A DNA stretch of 6,065 nt. Source: a bacterium. Lineage in GTDB: Bacteria > CSSED10-310 > JAJRTK01. The stretch is from the NCBI GenBank assembly GCA_024278345.1, contig JAJRTK010000067.1, forward strand, positions 1 through 6,065, read 5' to 3'. Positions 384 to 6,065 of this stretch are shown piece by piece. The first letter of the stretch is position 1; the number at the start of each line of letters is the position of its first letter. The notes below the pieces were generated by a model. The model worked only from the letters and a program-made list of their open reading frames with translations, had not been told where the DNA came from and did not search any database. The translations under genes were made by a program, and so were the position numbers.

Positions 384-1571
384 GTGGAGAGGGTGCGGAA
401 ACAACTGGATCGTCATCAATCGGTGCGGAGGGCTGGTGTTCCGAGGATATCGGTGTTTGGCGAGATGGAGGGCGTGAGCCAGTGGTCGTCCTGGCTCCGG
501 CGGCGGTGCCGGGCCTGCGTGGAAGCGACGGCTCCGGAGGTCGAAGCCATTGCTGCCGCCTTCCGGCGGGAGCTGCGGGGCAGCCGGGATCTTCTGGCCG
601 ATGTCGCTCGCGGTTTTGCCGAAGTTTTTCCCGATTCCGGTGAGCTGGCCATCCGGTGGCGCCGCGCCAGGTGCGTGGAGCGGGAAGACGCCGTGGGAAT
701 TGTTCTTGGCGCCAGCCGGTCCCGGCCAATGCGCGAAGTCGCCGCCGCTCTTCTGGGGGGTCCGGCAGTGGCGGATCCGGTGGTTCTATTCGGCGGGTTG
801 GCCGCATTGGTTCCAGAGCCCGAACAGCCCGGGATTCTCGTTCGCGCCTTGGAAGACGGTGCCATCGAGCCTGTTTTGGCTTCCCTGCTTCTCCTTGCCG
901 AGGCGGCGCCATCCGTTCCTTTCGCCATGGTGGGGGATTGGGAGGCGATCCGCCGCGTGGCCGGTGGAGCCCCGACAAGGGTCGTGATGGCGGTGCGGGA
1001 AGGAATGATCGATTCGAGGGAAATGGAGCGAGGCGGCGACCATGGCGAGCAGCGGGTGTCGGACGGCGCACGATGGGAGCGGAACTTAACACAGAGAAAA
1101 CAAAGGGATTACCGAGATTTACGACCTAGACGAAGAACACGATTGGAGAGCCCGGGGATGGCGGGGATTCCTGGAGGAGGCAGCGACGGGGGAGAATCTG
1201 GCGGTGAGGGGGAGGCGGGGCGGGAAGGAGAGGCCAGGAGTGTGGCGGAACGCGAATTGTGGAGGCTTCTTGAAGAGCATTCCGAGAGCCGAGGGCTGTT
1301 TCGCCTCAACCAGCGGATGCCTTACCGTTTTGGGTCCCGCCCGGCGGAGATCGATCTTTTCGCGATTTCCATTGGCCTTGCCATTGAGGTGGATGGCTAC
1401 TACCATTTTCTTGACGCAGAAGCTTACCGCCGTGATCGCCACAAGGACGTCCTGCTCCAGGAACGGGGACATTTGGTCCTACGGGTCCTGGCTGATGATG
1501 TGTTCGACCGGCCGGCGGATGTCTTGAAGTTCATCATCGACGCGGTACGCCGCAGAAGGTTGCCTCCATGA
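384..1571 (+). CDS. DUF559/Vsr-like nuclease-domain protein with uncharacterised N-terminal region
   Basis: A predicted 395-aa protein likely to cleave or nick DNA through its C-terminal domain. Residues about 286-390 match the DUF559 layout of the PD-(D/E)XK superfamily: an E-R-E-L-W helix (289-293), D324 in AEIDLF, then IEVDGYYHF (334-342) giving E335, D337 and H341, an RRDRHKD segment (349-355) and a closing LRVLADDV strand-helix (366-373). Residues 1-210 are helical and match no family I can name. Residues 211-285 form a linker rich in Arg, Gly and Glu. The start is GTG 384, with GGAGA upstream; GTG 393 is an alternative. The stop overlaps the next gene's ATG by 4 bp, implying coupled translation. 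Oddity: across 1110-1208 the third codon positions hold only 15 G/C of 33, against 23 of 33 in the +1 frame, which reads like ordinary protein; two compensating frameshifts are possible. The nuclease domain call is strong; substrate and role are unknown. Confidence 0.82.
   Translation: MERVRKQLDRHQSVRRAGVPRISVFGEMEGVSQWSSWLRRRCRACVEATAPEVEAIAAAFRRELRGSRDLLADVARGFAEVFPDSGELAIRWRRARCVEREDAVGIVLGASRSRPMREVAAALLGGPAVADPVVLFGGLAALVPEPEQPGILVRALEDGAIEPVLASLLLLAEAAPSVPFAMVGDWEAIRRVAGGAPTRVVMAVREGMIDSREMERGGDHGEQRVSDGARWERNLTQRKQRDYRDLRPRRRTRLESPGMAGIPGGGSDGGESGGEGEAGREGEARSVAERELWRLLEEHSESRGLFRLNQRMPYRFGSRPAEIDLFAISIGLAIEVDGYYHFLDAEAYRRDRHKDVLLQERGHLVLRVLADDVFDRPADVLKFIIDAVRRRRLPP
1554..1559 (+). 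promoter_or_regulatory. Ribosome binding site for the winged-helix gene, inside the nuclease gene
   Basis: AGAAGG lies eight bases before the ATG at 1568, within the final codons of the upstream gene. With the ATGA overlap at 1568-1571 it supports translational coupling of the two genes and this choice of start. Confidence 0.5.
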
Positions 1572-2533
1572 CACGGCAGATCGACCATCGTCGCCTTGAT
1601 CTCGTTCTTCTGGCCCGGATGTATACTCCCGGCAAAACAGTGCTTTCCCGGCGAATGCTGGTGAAGGCCATCGAACCGTTCTTCCACGGCCATGGAGGCG
1701 GCCGGCTGGCGGAGCTCGTGGAGGCGCGCCTGGCCTCCATGCGGGAAAGCGGGCTCGTCGAAGAGACGATCCATCGCCCCACGGACGCCGGAAAGAAGGT
1801 TCTTGCAAAAACTTTGGGCATGCGGCGCGCGGAGCGTTGGGATTCCGTCAAAAGGCGGCGGATTTTGGCTCTCGTTCTGGGCCTCGATCCCAAGGAGGCG
1901 AAGTCCAGAGATTGCGCTGGATCTATCGATAGGGTTCGCGCGCGTTTGCTACGCCAGCGTTTCGGCGTGCCCAAGACTGCGACCCCGACTCTGAGGCAGG
2001 CCGTGGACGCTCTGGTTTGCCGGCAGTTGGGACTTCCTGGAGAAAAGCCGACGTGGCAGGCCGTTCGAGAACTGGCGCTTCGCCAAGCCTTGGGCACCGA
2101 TGCGGCCATGAATGACGATGGGTTAGCACGACTGCTCGCGGCAAGGGAAGCGGGAGCGCCCAACACCGAGGACGCCGCGGTTCGGAATTCCCTGATGACC
2201 CGGTGGTTGGAGTCGATTTCCAAGGAAGAGGACCTGGAGTCCTTCGCCCGTTTGATCCAACGGGTGTTGGAAGAGGTCCCCCAGGACGGAAAGTTCGGCG
2301 AGAACCGGGTGTTTATCGCGGCGGCCTGGCGGGCATTCCTGAAACGGGGTGAGAAACTGGAGCTTCCGGAGTTCAAGAGCCGGCTGGTGGCTGCGAATCG
2401 CGAGGGTCTCTTGCGGCTGCACCGGGCCGATCTGGTGGGGGCGATGGATCCCCACCTGGTTCGGGAGTCGGAGAGCCGCTACCTCAATGCCACGTTCCAT
2501 TTCATCGAGTTTCAACCGGGACAGCCAACCTGA
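1568..2533 (+). CDS. Winged-helix-like protein of a nuclease/ATPase gene cluster
   Basis: A predicted 321-aa soluble protein with no enzyme motif, signal peptide or membrane segment. Residues about 8-85 look like a winged helix: helices around 8-18, 28-38 and 46-62 (AELVEARLASMRESGLV), then a short wing and a PTDAGKKVLAKTLG end (71-84) typical of wHTH folds. The middle (90-235) is helical and Arg-rich. Residues about 245-315 form a second compact unit with RVFIAAAWRAFL, EFKSRLVAANREGLLRLHRADLVGAMD in two parts, and a final SESRYLNATFHF; I recall this tail from unnamed proteins beside large ATPases in other bacteria. It probably binds DNA or bridges the nuclease and the motor, by analogy with wHTH adaptors in other defence systems. 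Its ATG overlaps the upstream stop, and 28 bases separate it from the next gene, so it is surely co-transcribed. A transcriptional regulator of the cluster is the main alternative. Confidence 0.78.
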   Translation: MTRQIDHRRLDLVLLARMYTPGKTVLSRRMLVKAIEPFFHGHGGGRLAELVEARLASMRESGLVEETIHRPTDAGKKVLAKTLGMRRAERWDSVKRRRILALVLGLDPKEAKSRDCAGSIDRVRARLLRQRFGVPKTATPTLRQAVDALVCRQLGLPGEKPTWQAVRELALRQALGTDAAMNDDGLARLLAAREAGAPNTEDAAVRNSLMTRWLESISKEEDLESFARLIQRVLEEVPQDGKFGENRVFIAAAWRAFLKRGEKLELPEFKSRLVAANREGLLRLHRADLVGAMDPHLVRESESRYLNATFHFIEFQPGQPT

Positions 2534-2549
2534 CCGGTGCATCTCAACA

Positions 2550-2556
2550 GGGGAGG
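2550..2556 (+). promoter_or_regulatory. Strong ribosome binding site for the double-ATPase gene
   Basis: GGGGAGG lies five bases before the ATG at 2562, in the 28-base gap after the winged-helix gene. It is the best Shine-Dalgarno match of the three genes and fixes the start of the long frame. Confidence 0.75.
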
Positions 2557-2561
2557 CTTCA

Positions 2562-5500
2562 ATGAGTAAGAGGATTGTTCAGCCCAATAGCGAGTTTCTG
2601 GTGCAGGAGATCGATGCCATCACCAGTCTCTTGGATCAGGTGGTCACCGATTCCAATCGGGAGGCAATCCTGGGACTTGCGGACAGGCTTCTGTCGCCGG
2701 CCTTGCCCAGCCGGCAGCTTGTCATCCGGGCGGCCCTCTGCTCCGATTGCATGTGGGTGGCCACCGAGGCCATCTACGCGGACAGTCGTCTTTCGCGGCG
2801 GGAAGTGGCGTTCATCAAGGATCTGGCGTTTCACGTGGCGAACCTCCTGGCCCGGATTCGCGAAGAGTACAAGCCCTTCTTTTACCTTGCTCAGGGCGTT
2901 CCGGCATTTCTTCATCGGTACCGATTCGATGAGGGCCTCTTTGGCAAGGCTTGCCGGGAGACCATGGGCGCGGGTGTCAGCATGTGCCGAAACGTGGCTC
3001 TCGCTTTCCAAGACGATCAGCCTTTGCGCCGGTTCGAACTGCTTCTCCTTCGGGTTGTGGACGACGTGATCGCCCTCGAAGAAGAGAACGGCGGTTTGCG
3101 GAACCTGCGGCTGACGGTTCGAGCAAAAGTAGAAGACTGGCTCGAGGCAGCCACCGAAACGGGGGACGAGCATTCCGATCCGCGGGTCGCGGCGTTTTGC
3201 AGGGCGGACGGGCCTCCGGTCTTTACGGCGATCGTTCCGGTTCACGAGGTTTGGAAACGCGATCCCCTCGACGTGGAAAGCGTTCACTCCGAGGCACGGG
3301 ACACGTTCCAGCACCTCATCGACCAGGTGACGGCGCCGGGGAATGTGGGATCCGGCCGCATCATGTTGCTCCTGGGCGAAGCCGGAAGTGGCAAGACCCA
3401 CCTCATGCGAGCCTTCCGCAACTACCTCCACCGAAGGCGCCTGGGAACCGCCGCTTATCTCCAGATGGCCACGCGGGCCGACGACTACGCACGGTACGCT
3501 CTGGGGAACCTCATCGATTCTCTTGAAAAACCCTACGACCCGCCGGACGTGACCGCTTCCGGGCTCATGGAGTTGTCGGACATCCTTGTGGAGGGGCCAG
3601 GCATCCTGGAGGGGGAAGAAATCGAGAAGCTCCGGAACGACAGCGGTATCGCCAACGACGGCACCGGCATCGACCCTGCGGTCGATTGCCTGTTGACGGT
3701 GCCGCGTTTGGCGGGCTTCGATTCGGACCTCTTGAGGGTGTTCCTCCTTCTTCAGCGCCGCAACCCGGCTGTCACCGCCCGGATCCTGAAATACCTCCGG
3801 TGCGAGCCGTTGACCGAATACGACCGCAGCGTTCTTGGCGGCATTGCGCCACGCTCCACTCCGGAAGCGCCGCAGCGCACCCTCAGCGAGATCGGGCGCC
3901 TCATCTGGCAAGTGACCGGCGGATCATTGGTGTTTCTTGTGGATCAGATGGAGGATATCCACAGCCAGGACGATCCCGAGCGCCGTTTCACCAGCGCCGT
4001 GGATGTTTTTCGGCGGATTGTGGACGATGTGCCATCGACCGTGGTGGTGCTGGCCTGCCTTTCGGACCTCTACACGAACCTCAAATCCCGGTTGACCCAA
4101 TCGGCCGTCGATCGGTTGGAGCGGAATCCGGCTCCAGCACGGCTGGCGGCTACGCGTAGTATCGAGGAGATCGAGAGCCTGGTTTCCCTGCGGCTGGCCT
4201 ATCTCTACGATTCTCAGAACGTCGGCCCTCGTACCGACGAGCCCCTTTTCCCCTTTTCTCTGGAAGACCTGGAGCGAATGCGGAATCTGCGCACCCGGGA
4301 TGTCTTGAGCTGGTGCCACAAGTTTCGCCAACGTTGCATCGAGTGTGGAGAGATAGTGGATTCGTCGGACATCGATCTGGAACCATCCCTTTCCGATGTT
4401 CCCGATGAGGCCAGCTCCATGTCCATGATCCGGGCCTGGAACGACTGGCGGCTGACTTTTGCGGAAGCCCCCTCGGACGACGGCGCCAGACTGGCCGCAA
4501 TTCGGTACGCCGTGGAGTTGCTGTCCCAAATGATTCGCCAAATCCAGACGAAATCCATGAGGGACGGAGACGTGTTGCTCGTCACGCTGGAAACCGCCGA
4601 CGGATCGCGGGATCACCTTTGCCTGGGACTCTGCAACAAGGGGGCACAACGGGGGGCGTTGGGAGCGCAGCTCCGGAGCCTCGAAGAAAAAGCGAAACAA
4701 GAGCATGCGCGGGTCGTGGCCCTCCGTTGTTCCCACTGGCCAAAAAGCAGGCGCGGCAAGATCGCAACACAACTGGGCCAGTTGACGCGGCGGGGCGGCC
4801 GGTGCCTCGTGGCCATGGATTCCGATTTGCGCACCCTTGCCGCCCTGCACGCCTTCCAAAGGCGGGAAGACGTGCCGGCTGTTTCGTTTTTACGCTGGCT
4901 TGAGGTGGAAAGACCCCTCCATCCCATGTCGTGGTTCTGGGATGCACTTGGCCTCGATCACGCCGCCGCCTTCAAGGCGGCGAGCATGGCCGGAGCGATC
5001 CCGCGGCGAACCTTTTCCCGGCCTGAGGCACAGAAAGCGATTCCAAGGGCCGGATCAAAACCCTCTGCCGCCAGCCGGAAAGAGAGGGTGGCCGCCGCCG
5101 GGGCGAAAAGCAGGGGAGATCGCACCAAACCCAAACCAGCGCCGCTTCCAGGAAAAAAGGCGGGCAAGGCTGTTCCTCCAGGGCTTTCCAAGGAGACTTC
5201 GCCAGCGCCTTCTCCCCCTCGTCGTGACGGTAGCGATCTCTCGGTCGGTCGCACCACGGGGCTCCGGAGCAGGGAGGTTCTCTTCCCGCTGAAGGAGATT
5301 CCCATGCACATTGGTTTCCTTGGATCCACGGGATCTGGAAAGACCACGGTGGCGCTGCACCTCGTGGAGCAGGCGCTGGCCAGAGGGATTCACACGCTGC
5401 TGGTCGATCGCAAGGGGGACCTCTGTGGTTATGCCGATCCCTCGTGGTGGGCCCGGCCGGCGCCGTCGGAGGAAGCGACGGCCCGGAAACACGCTCTGAG

Positions 5501-6065
5501 GGAGCGGCTCGACATCGCCCTCTATACTCCCGGCAGCCCTCACGGCCGACCGCTCTCGATTCCCGTCGTTCCGCCGGGATTGGCCAAAATGACCAGCTTC
5601 GACCGCAACATGGCATCCCGTCGCGCGGCGGAGGCTCTTGCCGCCATCATGGGTTACACCGCGGGCCGCACCTACTCAACCCTACGGGCCATCCTCACCA
5701 AGGCCGTAGAAATGCTGGGGGAATACGTTTCGGGCTCCCCTTCCCTGGAAGACCTTATCGCGCTCCTGAGAAACGAAGATCCGGGCCTCGTGAACGAAGT
5801 CGGGGGCCTTGGCACGCGCCACTTCGGAAAGCTGGTGGAACACCTGGAAACCCTGCGGATCGATCAGGGCCATCTCTTGGCCTCCCAGGGCGAGACTCTC
5901 GACGCAAAGCGCTTCTTTACGGGCTCCGGCCACAAGACCCAGCTCACCATTATCAGCACTAAGTTTCTCCGGGATCGGGCGCTGGAGTTCTGGATCTCCC
6001 GGCTCCTGGTGGAGATCGCCCGTTGGGCCAGCTCGTCTCCCGCCCAGAGCCTCCAGGCCCTGGTC
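2562..6065 (+). CDS. Two-motor ATPase: STAND/AAA-type NTPase fused to HerA/VirD4-like ATPase (3' end outside window)
   Basis: The frame runs 1168 codons without a stop and leaves the window, so the C-terminus is missing. Residues 1-215 are helical; around 65-95 a pattern with ADSRLSRREVAFI recalls TerB-like domains. Residues about 240-600 form a P-loop ATPase: Walker A GEAGSGKTH (272-280, K278), Walker B-like LVFLVDQMED (456-465, D461) and a conserved-looking DRLE (517-520) that may hold an arginine finger. Residues about 670-770 are alpha/beta and could be a decayed PD-(D/E)XK fold. Residues about 806-905 are a disordered linker rich in Lys, Arg, Ala and Pro. From 906 a second ATPase begins: Walker A GSTGSGKTT (921-929, K927) and LLVDRKGDL (946-954), as in HerA/VirD4/FtsK DNA pumps; its Walker B should lie just past the edge. 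The protein probably couples sensing or assembly (first ATPase) to DNA translocation (second), with the upstream nuclease as likely effector. The domain calls are firm; the biological role is inferred. Confidence 0.88.
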   Translation, partial: MSKRIVQPNSEFLVQEIDAITSLLDQVVTDSNREAILGLADRLLSPALPSRQLVIRAALCSDCMWVATEAIYADSRLSRREVAFIKDLAFHVANLLARIREEYKPFFYLAQGVPAFLHRYRFDEGLFGKACRETMGAGVSMCRNVALAFQDDQPLRRFELLLLRVVDDVIALEEENGGLRNLRLTVRAKVEDWLEAATETGDEHSDPRVAAFCRADGPPVFTAIVPVHEVWKRDPLDVESVHSEARDTFQHLIDQVTAPGNVGSGRIMLLLGEAGSGKTHLMRAFRNYLHRRRLGTAAYLQMATRADDYARYALGNLIDSLEKPYDPPDVTASGLMELSDILVEGPGILEGEEIEKLRNDSGIANDGTGIDPAVDCLLTVPRLAGFDSDLLRVFLLLQRRNPAVTARILKYLRCEPLTEYDRSVLGGIAPRSTPEAPQRTLSEIGRLIWQVTGGSLVFLVDQMEDIHSQDDPERRFTSAVDVFRRIVDDVPSTVVVLACLSDLYTNLKSRLTQSAVDRLERNPAPARLAATRSIEEIESLVSLRLAYLYDSQNVGPRTDEPLFPFSLEDLERMRNLRTRDVLSWCHKFRQRCIECGEIVDSSDIDLEPSLSDVPDEASSMSMIRAWNDWRLTFAEAPSDDGARLAAIRYAVELLSQMIRQIQTKSMRDGDVLLVTLETADGSRDHLCLGLCNKGAQRGALGAQLRSLEEKAKQEHARVVALRCSHWPKSRRGKIATQLGQLTRRGGRCLVAMDSDLRTLAALHAFQRREDVPAVSFLRWLEVERPLHPMSWFWDALGLDHAAAFKAASMAGAIPRRTFSRPEAQKAIPRAGSKPSAASRKERVAAAGAKSRGDRTKPKPAPLPGKKAGKAVPPGLSKETSPAPSPPRRDGSDLSVGRTTGLRSREVLFPLKEIPMHIGFLGSTGSGKTTVALHLVEQALARGIHTLLVDRKGDLCGYADPSWWARPAPSEEATARKHALRERLDIALYTPGSPHGRPLSIPVVPPGLAKMTSFDRNMASRRAAEALAAIMGYTAGRTYSTLRAILTKAVEMLGEYVSGSPSLEDLIALLRNEDPGLVNEVGGLGTRHFGKLVEHLETLRIDQGHLLASQGETLDAKRFFTGSGHKTQLTIISTKFLRDRALEFWISRLLVEIARWASSSPAQSLQALV

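What the first reader, a model, noticed from the sequence alone, without database searches (positions are those of the whole stretch)
384..6065. Compact nuclease / winged-helix / double-ATPase operon: candidate uncharacterised DNA-defence or DNA-processing system
Seen: three same-strand genes joined by a 4-bp overlap and a 28-bp gap, encoding a DUF559-type PD-(D/E)XK domain, a winged-helix protein and a large protein with two P-loop ATPases, the second HerA/VirD4-like. Known: nucleases paired with HerA-like motors and wHTH adaptors recur in prokaryotic defence systems (for example DptFGH and DUF4297-HerA). Inferred: this is a multi-subunit machine in which the motor moves on DNA and the nuclease acts as effector. 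The gene set does not match the composition of BREX, DISARM, Dpd, DptFGH, Zorya, Wadjet or Druantia as I know them. I recall similar trios in myxobacteria and actinobacteria but no assigned function.
Basis: partly seen in the sequence, partly recalled or inferred. Interest (0 to 1): 0.75.

Follow-up and report, generated by a model that had tools for sequence, protein, structure and literature searches.

The report
Three-gene DNA-motor nuclease defence cassette
Three neighbouring genes encode a DNA-cutting enzyme, a DNA-binding protein and a large double motor that very probably work together as one unit to catch and destroy invading DNA; the same trio turns up in unrelated bacteria at different places in their chromosomes, and in some relatives the cutting enzyme is missing and other weapon-like genes stand beside the motor.

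Summary
The window (a whole 6,065-bp contig) carries three same-strand genes: P1 (unknown N-domain + DUF559 nuclease), P2 (winged helices at both ends) and P3 (AAA+ ATPase plus HerA motor, cut by the contig end). The trio is a real evolutionary unit. In 43 relatives with full-length P3 start and enough upstream DNA, P2 precedes P3 in 42 and the complete DUF559 trio occurs in 34, across Myxococcota, Planctomycetota, Nitrosomonas and deltaproteobacterial MAGs. It is patchy in Nitrosomonadaceae (13/125 genomes) and sits at six unrelated sites in seven Nitrosomonas loci, once beside Thoeris. AlphaFold plus structure comparison shows P3's first ATPase is Orc/Cdc6/BrxC-like, followed by a restriction-endonuclease-like domain lacking catalytic acids, then HerA. 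That closely matches the predicted 'HerA/FtsK capture' systems of a 2024 comparative-genomics paper (PMC10853773), so the anti-invader reading is supported but the class is not new. New here: this three-gene DUF559 form, its distribution (near-universal and positionally stable in several Myxococcaceae genera), and relatives where the P2-P3 core stands without DUF559 beside YcaO-TfuA/trypsin-EAD1 or caspase-bDLD3 genes. No experiment shows defence.

The parts
384..1571 (+). P1: N-terminal ~210-residue domain of unknown fold + C-terminal DUF559 (PD-(D/E)XK/EDxHD-type) nuclease
   Evidence: ORF; DUF559 4.9e-7; homologues in same frame over residues 8-384; PDB profile hits 3hrl, 3r3p
1236..1547 (+). 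DUF559 nuclease domain of P1 (D324 at 1353-1355, E335 at 1386-1388)
   Evidence: Pfam residues 285-388; D324, E335, D337, H341 invariant
1017..1142 (+). copy of a ~127-bp interspersed genomic repeat read in frame as the P1 linker
   Evidence: 41 further hits in G000 at mostly 78-87% identity; frame 0 open
1568..2533 (+). P2: protein with N- and C-terminal winged-helix domains
   Evidence: ORF; model; VIA-align matches residues 1-112 to HxlR/DtxR/PadR/MarR wHTHs (Z up to 8.8) and 209-321 to Cdt1/ORC1 winged helices (Z 7.2-7.9)
2562..6065 (+). P3: double-ATPase protein, cut by the contig end
   Evidence: ORF; homologues; contig length 6065
2562..3176 (+). P3 N-terminal extension of 205 residues, absent from the relatives aligned
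   Evidence: alignment; no Pfam match; purine-rich ggggagg sequence just upstream of ATG 2562
3195..4394 (+). [quoted passage not shown] Walker B region D461-Q462)
   Evidence: AAA_16/BrxC_BrxD/nSTAND hits; Cdc6/Orc1 Z 14.1; BrxC and Orc1 top Foldseek hits
4401..4958 (+). P3 restriction-endonuclease-like domain, apparently inactive
   Evidence: alpha-beta-beta-beta-alpha-beta order; Foldseek hits EcoT38I and EndoMS; no conserved catalytic acids, CNK/CQK/CNR where ExK is expected
5220..6065 (+). P3 HerA/FtsK-type motor domain (Walker A K927 at 5340-5342), incomplete at C-terminus
   Evidence: DUF87 7.5e-9; solved HerA proteins 3.3e-7

Best explanation
The trio is a self-contained anti-invader DNA-restriction complex of the 'HerA/FtsK capture' kind. 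Shown here: the three proteins form one conserved, co-evolving unit; P3 joins an Orc/Cdc6/BrxC-like AAA+ ATPase, a restriction-fold domain without catalytic acids and a HerA translocase; P2 has two winged helices, the C-terminal one resembling those of ORC1/Cdt1; P1 carries an intact nuclease active site. Inferred: P2 and the Orc-like ring of P3 load onto DNA, the inactive restriction-fold domain helps hold or read it, the HerA ring pumps the bound DNA, and the DUF559 nuclease of P1, tethered by its N-terminal domain, cuts it. How invader and host DNA are told apart is unknown; no methyltransferase belongs to the trio.
For: Trio architecture and invariant catalytic residues. Conservation as a unit in 34/43 scorable loci, P2-P3 in 42/43; pairwise-distance correlations between P1, P2 and P3 of 0.94-0.96 against a shuffled maximum of 0.29, though shared ancestry contributes; P2 and strong P3 hits in the same 31/58 Myxococcia genomes. 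Mobility: 13/125 Nitrosomonadaceae; six unrelated sites in seven Nitrosomonas loci; full P3 only in the window's genome among 8 of its phylum. P3 fold: Cdc6/Orc1 Z 14.1 and the anti-phage ATPase RdrA Z 13.7, BrxC top Foldseek hit plus restriction enzymes. Some defence neighbours: Thoeris in L093, methyltransferase and a DUF262-like NsnA match in L118, ZacB-like gene in L078, type I-G CRISPR in L113 (hand-picked flanks). Domain set matches PMC10853773.
Against: No experiment. In Myxococcaceae it is near-universal and keeps its neighbours within lineages, which is unusual for a defence cassette. Many relatives sit among ordinary genes, and defence neighbours were picked by eye, without a background rate. 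The window's own flanks are unknown. A co-evolving gene set could serve any DNA transaction.
Confidence: 0.66

Rival explanations
1. The trio is a cellular DNA-handling machine (chromosome segregation, repair or developmental DNA processing) rather than a defence system; HerA and Orc-like ATPases are typical of such roles and the nuclease trims DNA ends.
For: Near-universal presence in two large Myxococcaceae genera with conserved neighbours over several species; ordinary neighbours in many other loci.
Against: Only 13/125 Nitrosomonadaceae carry it, at unrelated sites; relatives without P1 or with a broken P3 (L062, L071, L072); several relatives sit near defence genes.
Confidence: 0.17
2. 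The complex acts as an abortive, self-damaging sensor: phage replication or DNA ends trigger P3, and the nuclease cuts DNA indiscriminately, killing or arresting the cell instead of selectively restricting invader DNA.
For: No modification enzyme in the unit; the first ATPase also resembles signalling ATPases (NACHT, nSTAND hits; RdrA Z 13.7); relatives of the core sit beside caspase-bDLD3 and trypsin-EAD1 genes.
Against: A HerA motor and multiple winged helices suggest direct work on DNA; DUF559 has no shown toxicity here.
Confidence: 0.12
3. The genes belong to a mobile element (transposon or integrative element) and serve its own transfer or target selection; the Orc-like ATPase is a TnsC/MuB-type targeting ATPase.
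For: TnsC and MuB are among the closest folds (Z 13.3-13.7); the unit moves between sites.
Against: No transposase, integrase or relaxase recurs next to the trio in the ORF lists read; it occurs as three genes only; no viral-contig relative found and only one weak plasmid match, to the HerA part.
Confidence: 0.05

Closest known systems
HerA/FtsK capture systems of the Orc/CDC6 type (PMC10853773, NAR 2024; restated in PMC12839542, NAR 2026)
   Same: Same core set: Orc/CDC6 AAA+, inactive restriction-fold domain, HerA/FtsK motor, winged helices, an active nuclease; domains distributed over one or several polypeptides; mobile
   Different: DUF559 is not named in that paper's text; here Orc-like ATPase, inactive domain and HerA are fused in one protein and the Orc-type winged helix lies in a separate protein; whether the authors' supplementary list includes these genes could not be checked
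DndFGH/DptFGH
   Same: HerA motor + nuclease + multi-winged-helix protein
   Different: No DptF, DptG or DptH model matches at E<=1; no SWI2/SNF2-like or DAM-like module seen
BREX (BrxC) and BREX-related capture systems
   Same: P3's first ATPase is structurally close to BrxC/ORC; BrxC_BrxD Pfam model matches 12 of 32 members
   Different: No PglZ, methyltransferase or DUF4007 component in the trio
MADS (mad8)
   Same: PADLOC mad8 model matches part of the HerA domain (5.6e-13)
   Different: Only residues 907-1050 match; P1 and P2 match no mad model; three genes, not eight
Sir2-HerA / DUF4297-HerA (HerA-effector pairs)
   Same: Works like: HerA ring with a nuclease or NADase effector
   Different: Those are two-gene systems with stand-alone HerA and no Orc-like ATPase (from general knowledge)

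Membership tests
HerA/FtsK capture system, Orc/CDC6 type (PMC10853773) | Orc/CDC6-family AAA+ ATPase | tested here: met
   Model residues 13-420 match S. solfataricus Cdc6/Orc1 at Z 14.1, rmsd 3.8 over 258 residues; Orc1, ORC and BrxC in top Foldseek hits; rows for TnsC, MuB and RdrA are tied within 1 Z
HerA/FtsK capture system, Orc/CDC6 type (PMC10853773) | HerA/FtsK translocase | tested here: met
   DUF87 7.5e-9; solved HerA proteins 3.3e-7; Walker A K927 invariant
HerA/FtsK capture system, Orc/CDC6 type (PMC10853773) | Inactive restriction-endonuclease domain following the AAA+ core | tested here: met
   Domain of P3 residues ~614-799 with restriction-fold order, Foldseek hits to EcoT38I (prob 0.97) and EndoMS (prob 0.96) (the aligned range is not printed); catalytic acids not conserved
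HerA/FtsK capture system, Orc/CDC6 type (PMC10853773) | Inactive domain inserted between AAA+ core and Orc-type C-terminal winged helix of the same protein | tested here: inconclusive
   In P3 the domain is followed by a low-confidence linker and HerA; an ORC1/Cdt1-like winged helix is found in P2 instead (Z 7.2-7.9)
HerA/FtsK capture system, Orc/CDC6 type (PMC10853773) | Active nuclease of one of two families (one shared with AbiJ) | tested here: inconclusive
   DUF559 nuclease with conserved catalytic residues, but the text does not name its two families
HerA/FtsK capture system, Orc/CDC6 type (PMC10853773) | Mobile gene neighbourhood | tested here: met
   13/125 genomes in one family, six unrelated sites in seven loci
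DndFGH/DptFGH | DptF, DptG, DptH proteins | tested here: not met
   No PADLOC model of these matched P1, P2 or P3 at E<=1
MADS | Eight mad genes including methyltransferase | tested here: not met
   Only mad8 (partial) and mad3 (weak), both on the HerA domain; P1 and P2 match none; standalone trio in relatives
BREX / BRC | PglZ and methyltransferase or DUF4007 with BrxC | tested here: inconclusive
   BrxC-like ATPase fold present, but no PglZ or methyltransferase in the three genes; the window ends at the contig end and flanks of relatives were annotated only in part

The most novel reading that the evidence does not exclude
P2-P3 (winged helices + Orc/Cdc6-inactive nuclease-HerA) is a general sensing-and-capture core that can be armed with unrelated effectors: a DUF559 nuclease in most lineages, and in Polyangiales without DUF559 a YcaO-TfuA cassette with a STAND/WD40 protein and a trypsin-EAD1 protein, or a caspase-death-domain protein. 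That would be a HerA motor controlling proteases or peptide modification instead of DNA cutting.
Probability: 0.3. Interest if true: 0.75.

Novelty: new variant of a known kind. Interest (0 to 1): 0.52.

Why it matters
If true, it turns a purely predicted class (HerA/FtsK capture) into a compact three-gene unit that can be cloned and tested, with named catalytic residues and natural hosts (Myxococcus, Nitrosomonas, Isosphaeraceae). Its near-core status in predatory, multicellular myxobacteria would be unusual for a restriction system, and the relatives with other genes in place of DUF559 suggest that one DNA-capture core may drive quite different effectors.

Tried and rejected
Single-sequence scan of genome contigs with window P3 found nothing; the profile scan found 55 loci. 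Viral contigs: no relative; plasmids: one partial HerA match in Methylobacterium. Literature searches for DUF559 with HerA or anti-phage terms: none; DUF559 with defense: four papers, none chosen for reading from titles and abstracts. The 'MADS' lead from PADLOC was rejected as a partial HerA match. Rfam: no match in the window. Two genome-search runs failed on the server. A first tally of gene gaps used a wrong index and was redone.
Full report
What is there. The window is the complete contig C534 of a 6.06-Mb, 550-contig genome. P1 (395 aa) ends in a DUF559 nuclease domain, related to solved structures 3hrl and 3r3p, an endonuclease-like protein and a mobile-intron protein. P2 (321 aa) has no Pfam family. 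P3 (at least 1168 aa) has a first ATPase (AAA_16) and a HerA-type second one. The homologue in G035 continues for very roughly 150 residues beyond the point where the contig ends.

It is a real unit. A genome of another phylum (G035, the same contig as Citreicoccus inhibens L087) carries all three in the same order at 30-34% identity. In its class, 31 of 58 genomes have strong P3 hits, and the same 31 have P2. A profile scan of GTDB genomes gave 55 loci from Myxococcota, Planctomycetota, Verrucomicrobia, Nitrosomonas, deltaproteobacterial, Bacteroidales and other MAGs. Of 43 loci with a full P3 start and enough upstream DNA, 42 have P2 directly upstream and 34 the full DUF559 trio: 21/21 Myxococcaceae and kin, 13/16 others, 0/6 Polyangiales. 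Distances between homologues correlate at 0.94-0.96 among the three proteins; shared ancestry contributes to that figure.

How it is distributed. In Nitrosomonadaceae it is patchy, 13 of 125 genomes, and seven Nitrosomonas loci lie at six unrelated chromosomal sites, so it moves as a cassette. In the window's own phylum only its own genome among 8 carries a full P3. In Myxococcaceae the picture is different: it is near-universal in two large genera and keeps neighbours within lineages, and some genomes have two diverged copies. Decayed versions exist, such as a split P3 and P1 remnant in a Verrucomicrobia MAG, or P2-P3 without P1.

Structure of P3. An AlphaFold model of P3 residues 200-880 built on 32 relatives has mean pLDDT 82.8. 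Its first 400 residues match archaeal Cdc6/Orc1 (Z 14.1) with RdrA, TnsC, MuB and ORC close behind; BrxC and Orc1 head the Foldseek list, and 12 of 32 members hit the BrxC_BrxD Pfam model. The next domain (P3 ~614-799) has the restriction-enzyme order of strands and helices, Foldseek returns EcoT38I and EndoMS, and the expected ExK position reads CNK, CQK or CNR with no conserved acids, so it is probably inactive. A disordered linker leads to HerA. P2's model is weaker (pLDDT 75.7), with winged-helix matches at both ends, the C-terminal one to Cdt1 and ORC1; these Z values (7-9) are modest.

Comparison with the known. This domain set closely matches a class predicted in PMC10853773: Orc/CDC6 ATPase, inactive restriction domain, active nuclease, HerA/FtsK and winged helices, proposed to capture invader DNA and feed it to the nuclease. 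The window trio therefore appears to be a DUF559-armed, three-gene form of it. DUF559 does not occur in that paper's text, and its supplements could not be read, so whether these very genes are listed there is open. It is not DndFGH or MADS by PADLOC.

Context. Some relatives sit beside defence genes: Thoeris ThsB (8.6e-115) and a ThsA-like gene in L093, a methyltransferase and an NsnA-like (DUF262-type by eye) gene in L118, a ZacB-like gene in L078, and type I-G CRISPR genes in L113. These flanks were picked by eye, so no enrichment is claimed. In Sorangium, Minicystis and Polyangium the P2-P3 pair lacks DUF559 and follows an FHA/sigma-54 regulator, a kinase-AAA protein, an unknown protein, YcaO and TfuA; a WD40-repeat NTPase-like protein follows in Sorangium and a trypsin-EAD1 protein in Minicystis. 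In two other Polyangiales loci it is followed by a caspase-bDLD3 gene and a sigma-region-4 protein. This suggests, without proving, that the core can be armed with different effectors.

Verdict. Mechanism and defence role remain inferred from architecture, mobility and context.

Noticed in passing
window 1017-1142; L002-L008: A ~127-bp interspersed repeat with 41 further hits in the same genome (mostly 78-87% identical) is read in frame as 42 codons in the P1 linker; relatives lack it there. No Rfam match.
   Followed up: partly
L074:558-16978, L078, L096, L117: In Polyangiales P2-P3 lack DUF559 and lie in a conserved run: FHA-sigma54 activator, kinase-AAA, 216-aa unknown, YcaO, TfuA, P2, P3, with STAND/WD40 and trypsin-EAD1 genes downstream.
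   Followed up: partly
L120:13203-19392, L092:10777-16981: P2-P3 followed by a caspase-bDLD3 protein and a ~1270-aa protein with RNA polymerase alpha-CTD and sigma region 4 matches.
   Followed up: partly
L113:9074-17771: A more distant P3 relative in a Verrucomicrobia genome lies next to type I-G CRISPR-Cas genes (Cas3g, Cas5g/csb2).
   Followed up: no
window 2562-3176: P3 of the window has a 205-residue helical-looking N-terminal extension missing from the relatives aligned; no Pfam match.
   Followed up: partly
L104 (BNCN01000002.1): Record titled Comamonas sp. KCTC 72670 has the length and trio of G065:C2, which groups with Myxococcaceae; the record is probably mislabelled.
   Followed up: no
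L058/L057, L061/L060, L063/L062: Three myxobacterial genomes carry two diverged copies of the core; one copy (L062) has lost P1.
   Followed up: no
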